DNA of 64,000 nt. Source: Clostridia bacterium. Its GTDB lineage: Bacteria > Bacillota > Clostridia > UBA1381 > UBA9506. The stretch lies in assembly GCA_017416855.1 (NCBI GenBank), contig JAFQAZ010000007.1:1-64000 (forward strand), written 5' to 3'. The number at the start of each line of letters is the position of its first letter. The first letter of the stretch is position 1. The notes below the pieces were generated by a model that made no database searches, was not told the origin of the DNA, and was given only the letters and a program-made list of their open reading frames with translations. The translations under genes and the position numbers were made by a program. Positions 52,304-58,311 of this stretch are shown piece after piece.

Positions 52304-52347
52304 ACATAAATGGAGGGTTGCATAAGCAACCCTCCATTTATGTTTGC
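52304..52347. terminator. Bidirectional terminator between M20 peptidase and AraC regulator
   Basis: A 20-base perfect stem, AAACATAAATGGAGGGTTGC with its complement, loop ATAA. It overlaps the stop of the AraC gene. Confidence 0.92.
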
Positions 52348-53111
52348 TTGCTGTATTCACCGGGAGAGAGTCCGTATTTTTTCTTGAACATCCTTGAAAA
52401 GGTATACACATCGGTGTAGCCAATCCGTGATGCAATTTCTTTTTGGGGATATTGTTTCTTTTGTAAAAGTTCAGTAGCTTTTTTGAGCCGGTAAGAGATT
52501 AAGTATTCCTGAGGCGATATGCCGGTTTTTTGTTTGAATACTTTGAAAAATTGATTTCTGCTTATGCCTAAGGTTGCGGCAATTTCTTCTATTTTGATTT
52601 GCTCTGCGTAGCTTGACTCAATATAGTGACAGGCGCGGGTGACATAATCTTCTTCAAAAATGGTTGTGTTGCTCTGGTGTGTGGCCAGCTCGGTGAAAAA
52701 ATCGTATAAGGTGGCGCACATAACCCATTCGGGGGTTAAAGAATTTCTGCAGTCATACATTTTGTTGAATAAAGGTGTTGCCCAAAACGCAGAAAAAACC
52801 TTTTGAGAAAGGAGCTTTGCAAAGGGTTCGGCACAATCGAAGCTCACCCAGATGTAAGTGAGAGGTTGCTTCTCGTCAGAAATATAACTGGTAAAATCAC
52901 CCTTATGTGAAACGAAAATATCCCCTTTTTTAATCTGATATTCTTCATTGTTGAGCAAATACTTTCCGCTTCCTTTGGTTACATAATGCAAAACGTGTCT
53001 CTGGATATAGTGACGTGGAAAAACATCGCCGCTCTGGCATTGGTTCATGCCACAAACGGCAGGAGAAACCTCGTTCTTGCTGTTTCCGTTCAGAAAAAAA
53101 TGTTTAATCAT
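52338..53111 (-). CDS. AraC-family transcriptional regulator
   Basis: A 257-residue regulator. The N-terminal part is a cupin-like ligand domain (VFPRHYIQRHVLHYVTKGSG and YQIKKGDIFVSHKGD). The C-terminal 100 residues hold two helix-turn-helix units, IEEIAATLGISRNQFFKVFKQ and EIASRIGYTDVYTFSRMFKK, followed by YGLSPGEY. ATG 53111 is the best start, though its AAGGA is weakly spaced. It diverges from the ceramidase-like gene and is probably its regulator, responding to a sugar or acyl-sugar. The palindrome at 53175 lies between them. Confidence 0.9.
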   Translation of the reverse strand: MIKHFFLNGNSKNEVSPAVCGMNQCQSGDVFPRHYIQRHVLHYVTKGSGKYLLNNEEYQIKKGDIFVSHKGDFTSYISDEKQPLTYIWVSFDCAEPFAKLLSQKVFSAFWATPLFNKMYDCRNSLTPEWVMCATLYDFFTELATHQSNTTIFEEDYVTRACHYIESSYAEQIKIEEIAATLGISRNQFFKVFKQKTGISPQEYLISYRLKKATELLQKKQYPQKEIASRIGYTDVYTFSRMFKKKYGLSPGEYSKQT

Positions 53112-53174
53112 AGTTGCAAAAAATCCTTTTTTGAAAAATATGATGATTACATTATAACAAAAACAGGATACATT

Positions 53175-53194
53175 TTGCAATTTAAATTGCAAAT
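53175..53194. promoter_or_regulatory. Palindrome between AraC regulator and ceramidase-like gene
   Basis: TTTGCAATTT and AAATTGCAAA: a perfect 20-base palindrome. It overlaps a minus-strand TTGCAA that could serve as -35 for the AraC gene, whose -10 would be TATAAT at 53156-53151. It is a candidate control site for both directions. Confidence 0.6.
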
Positions 53195-53236
53195 TTTTTA
53201 TGTTACACTGAGAAAAAACGAGAAAGGATGTTTTTT

Positions 53237-54568
53237 ATGTTAGTTGGTTTTTCACAGGTTCGTTTTGACGATGCTTTCGATTACCGCATGGGCGGTACGT
53301 TTGTCAATTATATGCGTTCAGAAACAGAATTCCATACTCCGTTATTCTGCTCTGCCTGGGCAGTCAAGGCAGGGGACAACAGCTTTGTCTGGGTTTCCTG
53401 CGATGTGGCAAGATTTATGGAATGTGATGCTGATTATGTGCGTGAAAAGGTGGAAAAGGAAATCGGCATTCCAAAAGCAAGGGTTCTGGTTTCTGCAACT
53501 CATAACCATACAGGCCCCACAGCACGCCCCAGTATTTCGCCGTATTTCCCCACGGGCGATTTGTCTTACTTTGAAAAACTGGGTGACAAAGCGGCAGAAG
53601 CTTGCGTGCTTGCCTGGAACAATCTGACGGAAGCCACCATGTCTTATGCAAGATGCGATGAGGACAAATGTGTGCACAATCGCCGGTATTTAATGGATAC
53701 CGGTGAAAGTATGATGGAGCCCGGTGGCCCTGAATATCCCGGCAGACTGATGAAGGAAGGTCCGGAAGATACCGAGTTGCAGGCTGTTTGGTTTATGAAG
53801 GAAGGGAACCCAGTTGGGATTATTGTGAATTATTCCTCCCATCCTTCAGAATTATATGCCATGAAATATACCTCCGGCGACTATCCCGGTGTTATGCGCC
53901 GTGTGCTGCAAAATAACTATGGCGCCGACGTGCCCATCGTATTCCTGCAGGGGTGCTGCGGCAACCTGACACCTCGTGACCATGAGCACGATGCCACCTG
54001 GGGTCACGGTATTGACGGTGCAGAGCGGGTGGGTACCATTATTGCTGCCGACGTTATGCGAATGATTGCTCTGACCCGCGAGACCAGGGATATAACAGAT
54101 ATTCGCGTAAAAACAACAACCACCCGTCTGAATTTAAGAGAAGTCTCAGAAGAAGATTTAAAGAGAAGCGATGAAGTGTTTGAACTGCTGGAAACTGACC
54201 GTCCGGCTTTTGATGCTCTGGATGTAGCCGACAAGGGCTATGCCAATAAGGTTCGGAATTTGCTGAAAAAGTGGGAAGTGGCGCCCTATGAGGATGTGCC
54301 CATTGGTGCTGTCAAACTGGGCGACGTCATCTTTTTAACCCATCCGGCTGAACTGTTCTGCGAATATCAGCTGGACCTTAAAAAACAGTTGGGCGAAAAA
54401 ACCATCTGCGTAGAGCTGACCAATGGCGGCATTTGCTATGTAGCCACCAAGCAGGGCTATGTGCTGAAGGGCTATGAAATGAAGCAAGGTTTTTATGATT
54501 ATCACGCAGGGCAGAAGATAGAAGACTCTCTGATTGAACTGTCTAAAGAAATGGGTCATAAATTCTGA
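53237..54568 (+). CDS. Neutral/alkaline ceramidase-family hydrolase, first copy
   Basis: A 443-residue protein of the neutral-ceramidase N-terminal domain family. SATHNHTGP places zinc-ligand His at residues 89-91, VNYSSHPSEL gives another His (about residue 195), and FLQGCCGNLTP (about 225) corresponds to the family block that carries the catalytic Ser in true ceramidases, here with Cys-Cys-Gly. It lacks the C-terminal immunoglobulin-like domain and any signal peptide, so an external lipid substrate is unlikely. An N-acyl sugar is possible. AAAGG precedes ATG 53237. It is controlled by its own promoter and terminator. Confidence 0.82.
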   Translation: MLVGFSQVRFDDAFDYRMGGTFVNYMRSETEFHTPLFCSAWAVKAGDNSFVWVSCDVARFMECDADYVREKVEKEIGIPKARVLVSATHNHTGPTARPSISPYFPTGDLSYFEKLGDKAAEACVLAWNNLTEATMSYARCDEDKCVHNRRYLMDTGESMMEPGGPEYPGRLMKEGPEDTELQAVWFMKEGNPVGIIVNYSSHPSELYAMKYTSGDYPGVMRRVLQNNYGADVPIVFLQGCCGNLTPRDHEHDATWGHGIDGAERVGTIIAADVMRMIALTRETRDITDIRVKTTTTRLNLREVSEEDLKRSDEVFELLETDRPAFDALDVADKGYANKVRNLLKKWEVAPYEDVPIGAVKLGDVIFLTHPAELFCEYQLDLKKQLGEKTICVELTNGGICYVATKQGYVLKGYEMKQGFYDYHAGQKIEDSLIELSKEMGHKF

Positions 54569-54600
54569 GGAACTACAGAACGAAAAAATAGTGTTAATGA

Positions 54601-54632
54601 AGAAAAATCTCACCTTTTGGTGAGATTTTTCT
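54601..54632 (+). terminator. Terminator after the first ceramidase-like gene
   Basis: A 14-base stem, AGAAAAATCTCACC/GGTGAGATTTTTCT. Confidence 0.9.
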
Positions 54633-54680
54633 TGTTTTATTTGTGAGCAGAATAAAAAATAAATAAAAACAAGAAATCTA

Positions 54681-54709
54681 TTGAAATTCATTTTGTTTGA
54701 TGTTATAAT
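54681..54709 (+). promoter_or_regulatory. Promoter of the ceramidase-nagA-nagB-like operon
   Basis: TTGAAA (54681-54686), 17-base spacer, TATAAT (54704-54709). Confidence 0.75.
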
Positions 54710-54758
54710 ATAAATTAAGAATATTATGGAATTTTTTATATAAAGGAGCATATGAACT

Positions 54759-56108
54759 ATGAATAATTTACAAGCTGGTTTCGGTCGTGTAAATATTACT
54801 CCTATGATGGGTATTGAAATTGCCGGATATTATAAGGTTAGAAGAGCCGAAGCTGTTTTGGATGATCTGGAATTAAATGCGTTGGCACTTGCCAGTGGTG
54901 ATACCAAAGTGGTTATGATGACCATTGACCACTGCGGCGTGAAAAAAGTGATTATGGATAAAATCCGTGCCCGTGTGGCAGAAGCAGTCAAGCTTCCTGT
55001 TGAGGCTATTACCATTTCTGCAACTCACACCCACACCGGCCCTTGCATGAGACCGGAAAGCACAGACCCCTTAGAGCTTGAATACATAGAATTTGTCACC
55101 AAGCGTGCTATGGATGTGGCTCAGTTTGCGCTGGCTGACTTAAAACCTGCCGTGATGGGCTGGGGTATCGGTCAGGCACCCCGTGTTGCTTTTGTTCGCC
55201 GCTTCCGTATGAAGGATGGCAGCGTACAGACAAACCCCGGTGTAAACAACCCCAACATTTTAGCACCGATTGGCGATGTGGATGAAAGAGTTAACGTTGT
55301 TCGCTTTAACCGTGAAGGCGCAGAGGATATCGTAATGGTGAACTTTGGTAACCATCCTGATGTTGTGGGCGGTAACAAAATTTCAGGTGACTGGCCCAAC
55401 TTCCTGCGCAAAACAGTTGAAAAAGTTATTGACAACACAAAATGTATCTTCTTTAACGGTGCACAGGGCGATGTTAACCACGTTAACGTATTCCCCAGAG
55501 GCGGCGAAATGAATGATATGTTCAACGATTTTGACGATGTTGCCCGCGGTTATGCTCATGCCCGCCACATTGGCCATGTTGTAGCTGGCGGTGTGCTGCA
55601 GGTTTATGACAAGGTTCAATATGTGGATGTTGATTCCATTAAATTTACAGAAAAAGTCGTTAAGATTCCTTCTAACCGTGCTACGGCTGAAGAATTACCG
55701 GAGGCGCATCGTATTAATGACCTCCATCTGGCAGGCAAAGACAGCGAGTTGCCTTATCAGGGTATGATGCTTACGACCATGGTGGCAAAGGCTGCTCGTA
55801 TGGTTGCATTGGAAAATGGTCCTGATTTCTTTGAACTGTATCTGTCAGGTATTACCATTGGTCCTTTAGGCTTTGTGGGCATCCCCGGTGAACCCTTTAC
55901 CGGTGTAGGCAGAGGCATTAAAGAAACTGAAGGCTTTGATATGATTATGCCTGTTTGCTTAACCAATGGTTCTGAAGGTTATTACCCCATGCAGGAAGCC
56001 TATGACGAAGGCGGTTATGAAGCCGGCAGCTCCCGCTTTAAAGCCGGTGTGGCTGAACTTTTAATTGAAGGCGGTCAGGCTATGCTGAAGGAACTGGGAG
56101 GCAGATAA
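54759..56108 (+). CDS. Neutral/alkaline ceramidase-family hydrolase, second copy
   Basis: A 449-residue paralogue of the preceding enzyme. FGRVNITPMMGIEIAGYY is the typical start, SATHTHTGP carries the His ligands at residues 90-92, VNFGNHPDVVGG carries a further His, and FFNGAQGDVNHVN occupies the catalytic-Ser region, where no Ser is evident. The C-terminal PVCLTNGSEGYYPMQEAYDEGGYE is also family-like. There is no signal peptide. AAAGGAGC precedes the ATG. Only one base separates its stop from the NagA-like gene, so it should act in the same pathway. An amide-bond hydrolase working on an N-acyl amino sugar would fit. Confidence 0.83.
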   Translation: MNNLQAGFGRVNITPMMGIEIAGYYKVRRAEAVLDDLELNALALASGDTKVVMMTIDHCGVKKVIMDKIRARVAEAVKLPVEAITISATHTHTGPCMRPESTDPLELEYIEFVTKRAMDVAQFALADLKPAVMGWGIGQAPRVAFVRRFRMKDGSVQTNPGVNNPNILAPIGDVDERVNVVRFNREGAEDIVMVNFGNHPDVVGGNKISGDWPNFLRKTVEKVIDNTKCIFFNGAQGDVNHVNVFPRGGEMNDMFNDFDDVARGYAHARHIGHVVAGGVLQVYDKVQYVDVDSIKFTEKVVKIPSNRATAEELPEAHRINDLHLAGKDSELPYQGMMLTTMVAKAARMVALENGPDFFELYLSGITIGPLGFVGIPGEPFTGVGRGIKETEGFDMIMPVCLTNGSEGYYPMQEAYDEGGYEAGSSRFKAGVAELLIEGGQAMLKELGGR

Positions 56109-56109
56109 G

Positions 56110-57252
56110 ATGACAGCTATTATTAATGCCGTTTTAGTTATGAAGGATCATTACATCCCTGATGCAGTGCTCCTGATGGAAGACGGAAAAATTGTTGACT
56201 TTGGTCCGGCAAAAAAACTGCCTGTTCCCGCCGGTTGCGAAGTGATTGATGCAGAAGGCCTCTATGTTGGCCCCGGCTTAATTGATATCCACACTCATGC
56301 TGATGGGGATACTTATTTTCACGAAGACCCCATTAAATGCTCCGAAACTGTGCTGAAGCACGGTGTAACCTCTGTTTTGCCGGCGCTGTTTTACAGCATG
56401 AACAAAGAGGAGCATTTAGAGGCAATTAAAAAGTATAAGGATGCCATTGCAGCAGGAAAATGCAAGAACATTTTCGGTGTATATATGGAAGGTCCTTACT
56501 TAAACCCTGATTTTGGCTGTGACAAGGAAAAGAACGTCTGGAAGGATGCCATCGTTGAAAAGGATTATGCTGAAATCGTTGAGGCGGCCAAAGGCTTTGC
56601 CAAGGTTTGGTGTGTAGCACCGGAACGGGAAGGGATTTTAGATTTTGTTAAGTATGTCAAAAAAGAAATTCCCGAAATCGTGTTCTCTGTAGCTCATTCC
56701 GAAGCTACACCGGAACAGATTGAAGCTTTAATGCCCTATGGTTTAAAATTAGGCACTCACCACACCAATGCGACAGGTACCTTGGAGAATTACCCCGAAG
56801 TCCGTGGCGTTTGCGTGGATGAAACGGTTAACTACAATAACGATATTTATGCAGAAATCATCTGTGATTCCAAAGGTGTTCATGTACATCCTTATATGAT
56901 TCGTCTGATCAAAAAAATCAAAGGTCAGGATAAGATCATTCTGATTGCTGACTCTTTTGTGGCAGACGGTCCGCCGATTCCGGGTCTTGAAGATGCGTTT
57001 GACATCAACTTTGACTGGGGCGGCGACATTGCAGGCTCTAAACTCACATTGGATATTGCCTGCCATAATATGATGATTCATACAGGCGGCTCTGTCTGTG
57101 ATGTGTTCCGCTATGCATCTACCAATCCGGCTAAGATGCTCTCCCTTACCGATAGAGGCGATATTGCAAAGGGAAAACGTGCTGATTTAGTATTTGTCGA
57201 CCACCAGTTTGACGTAAAACGCGTCATTTTGGGTGGCGAGCAGATAAATTAA
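56110..57252 (+). CDS. Amidohydrolase, N-acetylglucosamine-6-phosphate deacetylase-like
   Basis: A 380-residue metal-dependent deacetylase of the NagA family. GPGLIDIHTHADGD gives H61 and H63. VYMEGPYLNPDFG supplies the metal ligand E127, VAHSEAT gives H196, THHTNATG gives H217/H218, and LIADSFVADG gives the catalytic D281. The canonical NagA substrate-binding blocks are only partly kept, so the substrate may be a related N-acyl amino sugar phosphate. It follows the ceramidase-like gene by one base and precedes the NagB-like gene by 34. Confidence 0.87.
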   Translation: MTAIINAVLVMKDHYIPDAVLLMEDGKIVDFGPAKKLPVPAGCEVIDAEGLYVGPGLIDIHTHADGDTYFHEDPIKCSETVLKHGVTSVLPALFYSMNKEEHLEAIKKYKDAIAAGKCKNIFGVYMEGPYLNPDFGCDKEKNVWKDAIVEKDYAEIVEAAKGFAKVWCVAPEREGILDFVKYVKKEIPEIVFSVAHSEATPEQIEALMPYGLKLGTHHTNATGTLENYPEVRGVCVDETVNYNNDIYAEIICDSKGVHVHPYMIRLIKKIKGQDKIILIADSFVADGPPIPGLEDAFDINFDWGGDIAGSKLTLDIACHNMMIHTGGSVCDVFRYASTNPAKMLSLTDRGDIAKGKRADLVFVDHQFDVKRVILGGEQIN

Positions 57253-57286
57253 AAAATAATAAAAAAAGATAAAAGGAGAAAAAACA

Positions 57287-58261
57287 ATGAGCAATTTTAT
57301 TACCGATCCGGCAACAAAATTTGATTTCCAGCCTCATGAATTTGTTCCTTTCAAGGACAAGAAGGTTTGCGAATATGTTCGCAGTCTCAGCGGTAAGGAT
57401 CTGGAAAAGAGAGAACCCTGGTGGCATCCCGAATTTAACGTAAAAGTTATGATGAACCCTCATCCTGTTCTCATCGCAACTCTGTTTGAACGTTTAAGAG
57501 CTGCTTCTGAAGCAGGCAAGAGCTTCACCATGATTCTGGGCAACCCCGAACCCGATACGTACATTCCTCTGGCACAGCTCATCAACTACTTTGGCATCGA
57601 CTGCTCCAAGGTTCACCTGGTTGCAGAAGATGAATGGGCTGATGAAGCAGGCAACATCGCTCCTATTACATATGAAGCAGGTTTTGCTCATTCTATGATC
57701 AAATACCTCTATATGCAGATTGATGAAAAGCTCCGTATGCCTATGGAAAACGTTCATTTCCCCACTAATGCAAACATTAAGGATTATTCCAAGATTATTG
57801 ATGATATTACAGAAGGCACCGGTGCTGACATTGCTTCTACCTCTCCGGGTTGGGCAGGTCATATGGCATTTGTTGATCCTATTCCTGAATTCATCGGCAG
57901 CGGCGATGTTGAAGAATGGCTCAACCAGCCTGCACAGATCGTTAAACTGCATCCCATGACCATAATGCAGAACTCCTTAAATGGTACCTTCGGTCAGTCC
58001 GGCGATATCGCTAACGTTCCGCCTTGCGCTGCAACTATCGGTCCTTTAGATGTAATGCGTGCAAAGGAAAGAATTGAAGTTCATGCACTGGCAACCTGCG
58101 GTACATTCTCATCCTGGCAGAGAATGACCAGCCGTCTGTGTACACACGGCCCCATTACACCGTACCTCCCCAGTTCTATGCTGCAGACCAAGAAAACTCA
58201 GGTTTACATCAGTGAAGAACTGGCTGCTCCCTTCGAATGCTGGGAAAAAGTTGGTTATTAA
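57287..58261 (+). CDS. NagB-like sugar-phosphate isomerase-fold protein with altered active site
   Basis: A 324-residue protein of the glucosamine-6-phosphate deaminase fold. It has an N-terminal extension of about 50 residues beyond NagB. The usual GGxTP phosphate loop reads ILGNPEPDTY (residues 83-92). DEW (115-117) occupies the position of the catalytic Asp in DEYVG. GWAGHMAFVDP (188-198) replaces GxxDGHIAFNEP: the His stays (H192), the following Asp is lost (A190), and Glu is changed to Asp (D197). AAAAGGAG precedes the ATG. It may catalyse isomerisation, aldol-type or other chemistry on an amino sugar, or it may be regulatory. Confidence 0.75.
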   Translation: MSNFITDPATKFDFQPHEFVPFKDKKVCEYVRSLSGKDLEKREPWWHPEFNVKVMMNPHPVLIATLFERLRAASEAGKSFTMILGNPEPDTYIPLAQLINYFGIDCSKVHLVAEDEWADEAGNIAPITYEAGFAHSMIKYLYMQIDEKLRMPMENVHFPTNANIKDYSKIIDDITEGTGADIASTSPGWAGHMAFVDPIPEFIGSGDVEEWLNQPAQIVKLHPMTIMQNSLNGTFGQSGDIANVPPCAATIGPLDVMRAKERIEVHALATCGTFSSWQRMTSRLCTHGPITPYLPSSMLQTKKTQVYISEELAAPFECWEKVGY

Positions 58262-58282: not shown

Positions 58283-58311
58283 AAGGATGTGCCCAAAAGG
58301 CACATCCTTTT
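58283..58311 (+). terminator. Terminator of the ceramidase-nagA-nagB-like operon
   Basis: Stem AAGGATGTGCC/GGCACATCCTT followed by T. Confidence 0.88.

What the first reader, a model, noticed from the sequence alone, without database searches (positions are those of the whole stretch)
53237..58261. Possible uncharacterised N-acyl amino-sugar pathway: two ceramidase-family enzymes with NagA- and NagB-like partners
Ceramidase-family proteins normally cleave sphingolipid amides outside the cell. Here two copies without signal peptides or C-terminal domains are placed with an amidohydrolase of the NagA type (one-base gap) and a NagB-like isomerase, under a divergent AraC regulator. The catalytic Ser region is changed in both copies. 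A cytoplasmic pathway that strips an acyl or amide group from a modified amino sugar and then deacetylates and converts its phosphate would explain the grouping.
Basis: inference. Interest (0 to 1): 0.7.

Follow-up and report, generated by a model that had tools for sequence, protein, structure and literature searches.

The report
Ceramidase-fold, NagA-like, NagB-like amino-sugar operon
In an uncultured gut Clostridia bacterium, a ceramidase-like enzyme is encoded in one operon with two relatives of N-acetylglucosamine-degrading enzymes, and its deaminase-like member has lost the usual phosphate-binding residues, which points to an undescribed route for breaking down N-acylated amino sugars that are not yet phosphorylated.

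Summary
The genes are real. Their ceramidase fold is confirmed for cerB: the predicted structure matches neutral ceramidase at Z 39, and the zinc ligands and catalytic residues are kept. The linkage is not chance. All five distant NagB-like loci in a 398-genome phylum sample have a ceramidase-like gene within about 3 kb, and in the own genome 8 of 12 ceramidase-like loci lie within 5 kb of a NagA/NagB gene (about 0.9 expected). The NagB-like subfamily has lost NagB's phosphate-binding residues but keeps D72 and H143. Relatives pair it with N-deacylases of other folds (PIG-L, M20). Several operons add an FGGY kinase, SIS and TPI-like isomerases, YjbQ and FSA-type aldolase. Best reading: cytoplasmic N-deacylation and deamination of a non-phosphorylated amino sugar, with the ketose phosphorylated afterwards. 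The sugar is unknown and nothing has been assayed. The changed Ser is a structural residue and is changed family-wide.

The parts
52338..53192 (-). AraC-family regulator, divergent from cerA (likely start at the ATG at 53111)
   Evidence: Pfam HTH_18 8.5e-23, AraC_binding 2.7e-19; start judged from sequence
53237..54568 (+). cerA: single-domain ceramidase-fold protein, separate transcription unit, lineage-restricted. The ORF opens at 53228; the ATG at 53237 has the better ribosome-binding site
   Evidence: Ceramidase_alk 1.8e-5; zinc and catalytic columns kept; close copies only in G000 and G014
54600..54633 (+). terminator-like hairpin after cerA
   Evidence: 15 pairs plus T-rich tail; consensus match only
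54681..54709 (+). promoter-like site before cerB (TTGAAA-17-TATAAT, extended -10)
   Evidence: 11 of 12 matches; consensus match only
54759..56108 (+). cerB: ceramidase-fold zinc amidase, first gene of the cerB-nagA-nagB operon
   Evidence: AF2 model pLDDT 94.3; neutral ceramidase Z 39, 390 residues aligned; profile 4.2e-29 to human neutral ceramidase
56110..57252 (+). NagA-like amidohydrolase (predicted N-deacylase)
   Evidence: TIGR00221 1.7e-54 but under cut-off; metal and catalytic residues E127, H196, H217, D281 invariant
57287..58261 (+). NagB-like deaminase/isomerase without NagB's phosphate site
   Evidence: NagB profile 1.3e-16; NagB fold, Foldseek 9.1e-15; residue changes
58283..58309 (+). 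terminator-like hairpin after nagB-like
   Evidence: 12 pairs (listed on the - strand) followed by TTTTTT on the + strand; consensus match only

Best explanation
cerB-nagA-nagB is a cytoplasmic catabolic operon for an N-acylated amino sugar that is deacylated and deaminated before it is phosphorylated. cerB, a zinc amidase of the neutral-ceramidase fold, and the NagA-like amidohydrolase remove N-acyl groups; they either act on different acyl groups of one substrate or one after the other. The NagB-like protein then opens the ring of the free 2-amino sugar and deaminates and isomerises it to a ketose plus ammonia, using the D72 and H143 equivalents but no phosphate site. The ketose is phosphorylated afterwards by an FGGY kinase, and the phosphate is handled by the dedicated SIS isomerase, FSA-type aldolase and TPI-like isomerase. 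In many relatives these genes share the operon; in this genome a TPI-SIS-YjbQ-FGGY cluster lies elsewhere, at G000:C2:86.8-90.7 kb. A 6-deoxy amino sugar (fucosamine or quinovosamine type), which cannot be 6-phosphorylated, would explain the lost phosphate site, but the sugar is not determined. Shown by computation: folds, kept and lost residues, linkage. Inferred: order of steps, reactions, substrate.
For: 1. Linkage. All five distant NagB-like loci in the phylum sample (36-42% identity) carry a ceramidase-like gene within about 3 kb. Of 34 full-flank loci at 60% identity or more, 31 have a NagA-like and 19 a cerB-like gene. In the own genome 8 of 12 ceramidase-like loci lie within 5 kb of a NagA/NagB gene, with 0.07 expected per locus and a tail of 2.5e-7. 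2. NagB-like residues: G43-T44 deleted, R172 to L in 19 of 20, K208 to Q in 20 of 20, D72 and H143 invariant. 3. Relatives pair the NagB-like protein with PIG-L or M20 proteins instead of, or as well as, NagA. 4. cerB keeps zinc ligands H90, H199, E378, Y408 and catalytic H92, R147, Y420. 5. Whole-pathway operons in L120, L131, L157, L159, L166 and L178 with FGGY, TPI, SIS, YjbQ and (in all but L157 and L159) FSA. 6. TPI-like and NagB-like co-occur across the family: 8 of 8 TPI genomes, Fisher 3.6e-4. 7. A known route deacetylates and deaminates GlcNAc1A before phosphorylation (PMC12017989).
Against: The NagA-like protein keeps the equivalents of R227 and H251 (recalled as the E. coli NagA phosphate contacts), so its substrate could still carry an anionic group. 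D141, part of NagB's ring-opening site, is lost and E148 is Asp in the window protein, so activity could differ or be gone. nagA and nagB have different synonymous divergence, so they are not always inherited together, and cerB is missing from many nagA-nagB pairs. In this genome the FGGY/TPI/SIS cluster is unlinked and sits next to a fucose-isomerase-like gene, so it may serve another sugar. Loci are related MAG contigs, so counts overstate independence. The phylum samples were drawn separately.
Confidence: 0.45

Rival explanations
1. Phosphorylated variant of the Nag pathway: the substrate is a 6-phosphate (or otherwise anionic) N-acyl amino sugar and the NagB-like enzyme binds the anion by other residues. 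cerB removes an unusual acyl group before NagA.
For: NagA-like keeps R232 and H258, aligned with the recalled phosphate contacts. Ceramidase-like genes also sit with canonical, phosphate-type NagA and NagB in L094, L101 and L232. An Arg (R279) lies next to the lost Lys.
Against: The phosphate loop is deleted, R172 is Leu and K208 is Gln across the NagB-like subfamily. No sugar kinase acting on an amino sugar and no PTS gene was seen in the conserved neighbourhood; the kinase there is FGGY.
Confidence: 0.2
2. cerB is an amide hydrolase for another bond of an amino-sugar conjugate (for example a muramyl-peptide, uronamide or lactam), upstream of ordinary NagA/NagB-type salvage.
For: Linkage to several different NagA/NagB types. 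Large paralogue expansion, 12 ceramidase-like loci in one 2.4 Mb genome. SIS and AAC(3)-like neighbours in some distant loci.
Against: No peptidoglycan-recycling genes were recognised as recurring in the neighbourhoods. Nothing here identifies the bond.
Confidence: 0.2
3. The grouping is a loose island of sugar-catabolism genes: cerB and nagA-nagB serve different substrates and are co-located because both respond to plant or microbial glycans.
For: nagA-nagB pairs without cerB are common. Many ceramidase-like paralogues sit with GFO/IDH, aldolase or PfkB genes instead.
Against: One-base gap and own promoter-like site for cerB-nagA-nagB. Five of five distant loci keep the linkage. The within-genome enrichment holds across paralogues.
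Confidence: 0.15

Closest known systems
Neutral/alkaline non-lysosomal ceramidase (Pfam PF04734; P. aeruginosa 2zws, human ASAH2 4wgk)
   Same: Fold (Z 39), zinc ligands, catalytic His, Arg and two Tyr
   Different: No C-terminal domain, no signal peptide, Ser354 position Asn/Thr, linked to amino-sugar genes rather than sphingolipid genes
Glucosamine-6-phosphate deaminase NagB
   Same: Fold; D72 and H143 kept
   Different: Phosphate loop, R172 and K208 lost; D141 lost; no Pfam PF01182 match
[quoted passage not shown]
   Same: Amidohydrolase with the same metal and catalytic residues; TIGR00221 1.7e-54
   Different: Under the NagA equivalog cut-off; the GxH motif near residue 134 is changed in most members; no nearby kinase making a 6-phosphate substrate
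GlcNAc1A (oxidised chitin) pathway OngB-OngC-KdgK (PMC12017989)
   Same: Deacetylation and deamination before phosphorylation
   Different: Different deacetylase (subtype V amidohydrolase, Cys metal ligand). Substrate is an aldonic acid, phosphorylated by KdgK at the end; here the kinase is FGGY and the deaminase NagB-like

Membership tests
Neutral ceramidase (PF04734) | Ceramidase catalytic-domain fold | tested here: met
   cerB model Z 39.0 to 2zws, 390 aligned, 18% identity; profile 4.2e-29 to 4wgk; cerA judged by sequence only
Neutral ceramidase (PF04734) | Zinc ligands and catalytic His196, Arg257, Tyr579, Tyr591 | tested here: met
   Columns invariant in 24 of 24 except one zinc His lost in two 500-aa paralogues
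Neutral ceramidase (PF04734) | Ser354 of the GDVSPN motif | tested here: not met
   Asn in cerB, Thr in cerA, Asn/Gly/Cys in the other members of the alignment
Neutral ceramidase (PF04734) | Pfam gathering score | tested here: not met
   24.0 and 20.8 bits against 32.1; two paralogues in the same genome exceed it
Neutral ceramidase (PF04734) | Secretion signal and C-terminal Ig-like domain | tested here: not met
   446 and 449 aa, no hydrophobic N-terminus
Neutral ceramidase (PF04734) | Ceramide hydrolysis | not testable with these tools
   No assay
NagB glucosamine-6-phosphate deaminase | NagB fold and catalytic D72 and H143 | tested here: met
   Foldseek 9.1e-15; invariant columns
NagB glucosamine-6-phosphate deaminase | Substrate phosphate site (G43-T44 loop, R172, K208) | tested here: not met
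   Deleted; Leu in 19 of 20; Gln in 20 of 20 (E. coli sequence and residue roles from memory)
NagB glucosamine-6-phosphate deaminase | D141 of the ring-opening triad | tested here: not met
   A/T/P/C/M
NagA GlcNAc-6-P deacetylase | Metal-binding and catalytic residues | tested here: met
   E127, H196, H217, D281 invariant
NagA GlcNAc-6-P deacetylase | NCBIfam equivalog cut-off (TIGR00221) | tested here: not met
   185.3 bits against 225.65
NagA GlcNAc-6-P deacetylase | Phosphate contacts R227 and H251 | tested here: inconclusive
   R232 (nearly invariant) and H258 (invariant) align, but the loop differs and the roles are from memory
OngB-type GlcNAc1A deacetylase | Cys metal ligand (subtype V) | tested here: not met
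   NagA-type E127 instead (PMC12017989)

The most novel reading that the evidence does not exclude
The NagB-like subfamily is the first NagB-superfamily enzyme acting on free, non-phosphorylated amino sugars. With ceramidase-fold deacylases and a dedicated FGGY kinase, SIS isomerase, FSA-type aldolase and TPI-like set, it forms an undescribed pathway for 6-deoxy or otherwise unusual N-acyl amino sugars of microbial glycans in the herbivore hindgut.
Probability: 0.25. Interest if true: 0.75.

Novelty: new variant of a known kind. Interest (0 to 1): 0.5.

Why it matters
Single-domain ceramidase-like proteins are annotated as ceramidases by homology. Here they sit in amino-sugar operons, so that annotation is probably misleading. 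The lost phosphate site in a NagB relative gives a sharp, cheap test of whether amino sugars can be deaminated before phosphorylation. If true, it would open a route for N-acyl amino sugars, including 6-deoxy ones, whose breakdown I found no described pathway for in the papers searched.

Tried and rejected
A DNA search of E. coli genomes found no match. Paper searches for ceramidase-like genes with NagA/NagB, PULs or amino-sugar pathways, and for N-acetylfucosamine or quinovosamine catabolism, gave nothing relevant.

Rejected: ceramide or sphingolipid degradation (no such neighbours recognised; no exported form or Ig-like domain). Inactive pseudo-ceramidase (all catalytic residues kept). Chance neighbours. 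cerA as a core member. The SNF transporter as part of the operon (terminator-like hairpin and separate promoter-like site between).

The first ORF picking called antisense ORFs over nagA in some loci and was redone with homology weighting. The NagB model is weaker (pLDDT 84, with 190-194 and 271-274 under 50), so pocket geometry was not interpreted.

Full report
What is there. The window holds a divergent AraC gene, cerA (53237-54568; the ORF opens at 53228), cerB (54759-56108), a NagA-like amidohydrolase (56110-57252) and a NagB-like protein (57287-58261), then a sodium:neurotransmitter-type transporter. Between cerA and cerB lie a strong terminator-like hairpin and an 11/12 promoter-like site. 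After nagB-like comes another hairpin, and a promoter-like site precedes the transporter. The likely operon is therefore cerB-nagA-nagB. cerA and the AraC gene form a separate pair, and cerA has a close copy in only one other genome of the family (98% in G014; the next best is 27-28%).

Ceramidase-like proteins. By Pfam both copies fall under the curated cut-off. A 24-member family profile matches human and Pseudomonas neutral ceramidase at 4.2e-29 and 3.5e-27. The cerB model (pLDDT 94.3) matches only ceramidases strongly: Foldseek 2.6e-27, VIA Z 39, 390 residues. The zinc ligands (human H194, H303, E540, Y579; ligand roles from memory, mapped by the alignment) correspond to H90, H199, E378, Y408. 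The catalytic residues named in a review (H196, R257, Y579, Y591; PMC6952831) correspond to H92, R147, Y408, Y420. All are invariant except one zinc His in two 500-aa paralogues. The GDVSPN serine is Asn or Thr here and Asn, Gly or Cys in the other members. The same review says Ser354 stabilises Arg257, so the change alters the pocket base, not the nucleophile. These are most likely active zinc amidases with a different, non-lipid substrate (inference).

NagA-like protein. It keeps the metal and catalytic residues and the equivalents of R227 and H251 but falls under the NagA equivalog cut-off.

NagB-like protein. No Pfam match, but the profile matches NagB at 1.3e-16 and the model has the NagB fold. 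Aligned to E. coli NagB, across 20 members down to 26% identity, the phosphate loop loses two residues, R172 becomes Leu (Ile once), K208 becomes Gln, and D141 is lost, while D72 and H143 are invariant (E. coli sequence and residue roles from memory). This argues for a substrate without the 6-phosphate.

Neighbourhoods. Ninety-three to 100% identical NagB-like genes sit next to a nagA-like gene in family members, with or without cerB. Among 80 named loci, mostly ruminant hindgut Clostridia and Oscillospiraceae MAGs, 31 of 34 with full flanks at 60% identity or more have NagA-like and 19 of 34 cerB-like genes; TPI-like 16, YjbQ 15, SIS 13, FGGY 11, FSA 9. Families were identified. Near-complete operons include L120 (nagA nagB FGGY TPI SIS YjbQ FSA), L166, L178, L131, and L157/L159 with cerB. 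Distant NagB-like loci (36-42%, families f13, f43, f122) all have a ceramidase-like gene within about 3 kb, together with ABC sugar transporters, GFO/IDH, DegT or PIG-L genes. Other relatives use an M20 protein (L047, L048). Ceramidase-like genes also sit with canonical NagB and NagA (L094, L101, L232). In the own genome 8 of 12 ceramidase-like loci lie within 5 kb of a NagA/NagB gene, tail 2.5e-7.

Model. N-deacylation (cerB, NagA-like), deaminating isomerisation of the free amino sugar (NagB-like), then ketose phosphorylation (FGGY) and cleavage (SIS, FSA, TPI-like). Linkage, folds and residues are computed; reactions and substrate are inferred. The closest precedent in logic is the GlcNAc1A pathway, which deacetylates and deaminates before phosphorylation (PMC12017989) but uses other enzyme families.

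Limits. MAG contigs, related loci and mechanical ORF calls inflate counts. The kinase/isomerase cluster is unlinked in this genome, at G000:C2 beside a fucose-isomerase-like gene. nagA and nagB differ in synonymous divergence, so they have partly separate histories. No activity is known.

Noticed in passing
L059:9780-11478 (G000:C25) and L049:14088-15807 (G010): A second NagB-like subfamily (about 28-30% identical to the window protein, also without the phosphate loop) sits beside a PIG-L deacetylase gene in both loci read; NagB-like genes of this identity range occur in most of the 20 genomes of the family.
   Followed up: partly
G000 (L055-L058, L091-L097): At least 12 ceramidase-like loci in one 2.4 Mb genome, several beside GFO/IDH, aldolase, PfkB or GH88 genes.
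   Followed up: partly
L109:248-4331 (G010:C22): Three ceramidase-like genes in tandem.
   Followed up: no
L057:3534-5609: NagA-like amidohydrolase fused to a ROK domain in one 691-aa protein.
   Followed up: no
L096:9027-10529 and L097:9491-11005: 500-aa ceramidase-like paralogues in which a zinc His is Pro; possibly a non-zinc or inactive branch. Similar 500-aa pairs lie beside the FGGY cluster in L204 and L205.
   Followed up: no
L203:7488-12706 (G000:C2): Operon TPI-like, SIS, YjbQ, FGGY kinase and a 449-aa fucose-isomerase-like protein: a possible undescribed sugar pathway of its own.
   Followed up: partly
window:57287-58261 against L042, L043, L044, L046: nagB-like protein is 93-99% identical between species while its nagA partner is 59-90%, with different synonymous divergence: strong constraint and partly separate histories.
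   Followed up: partly
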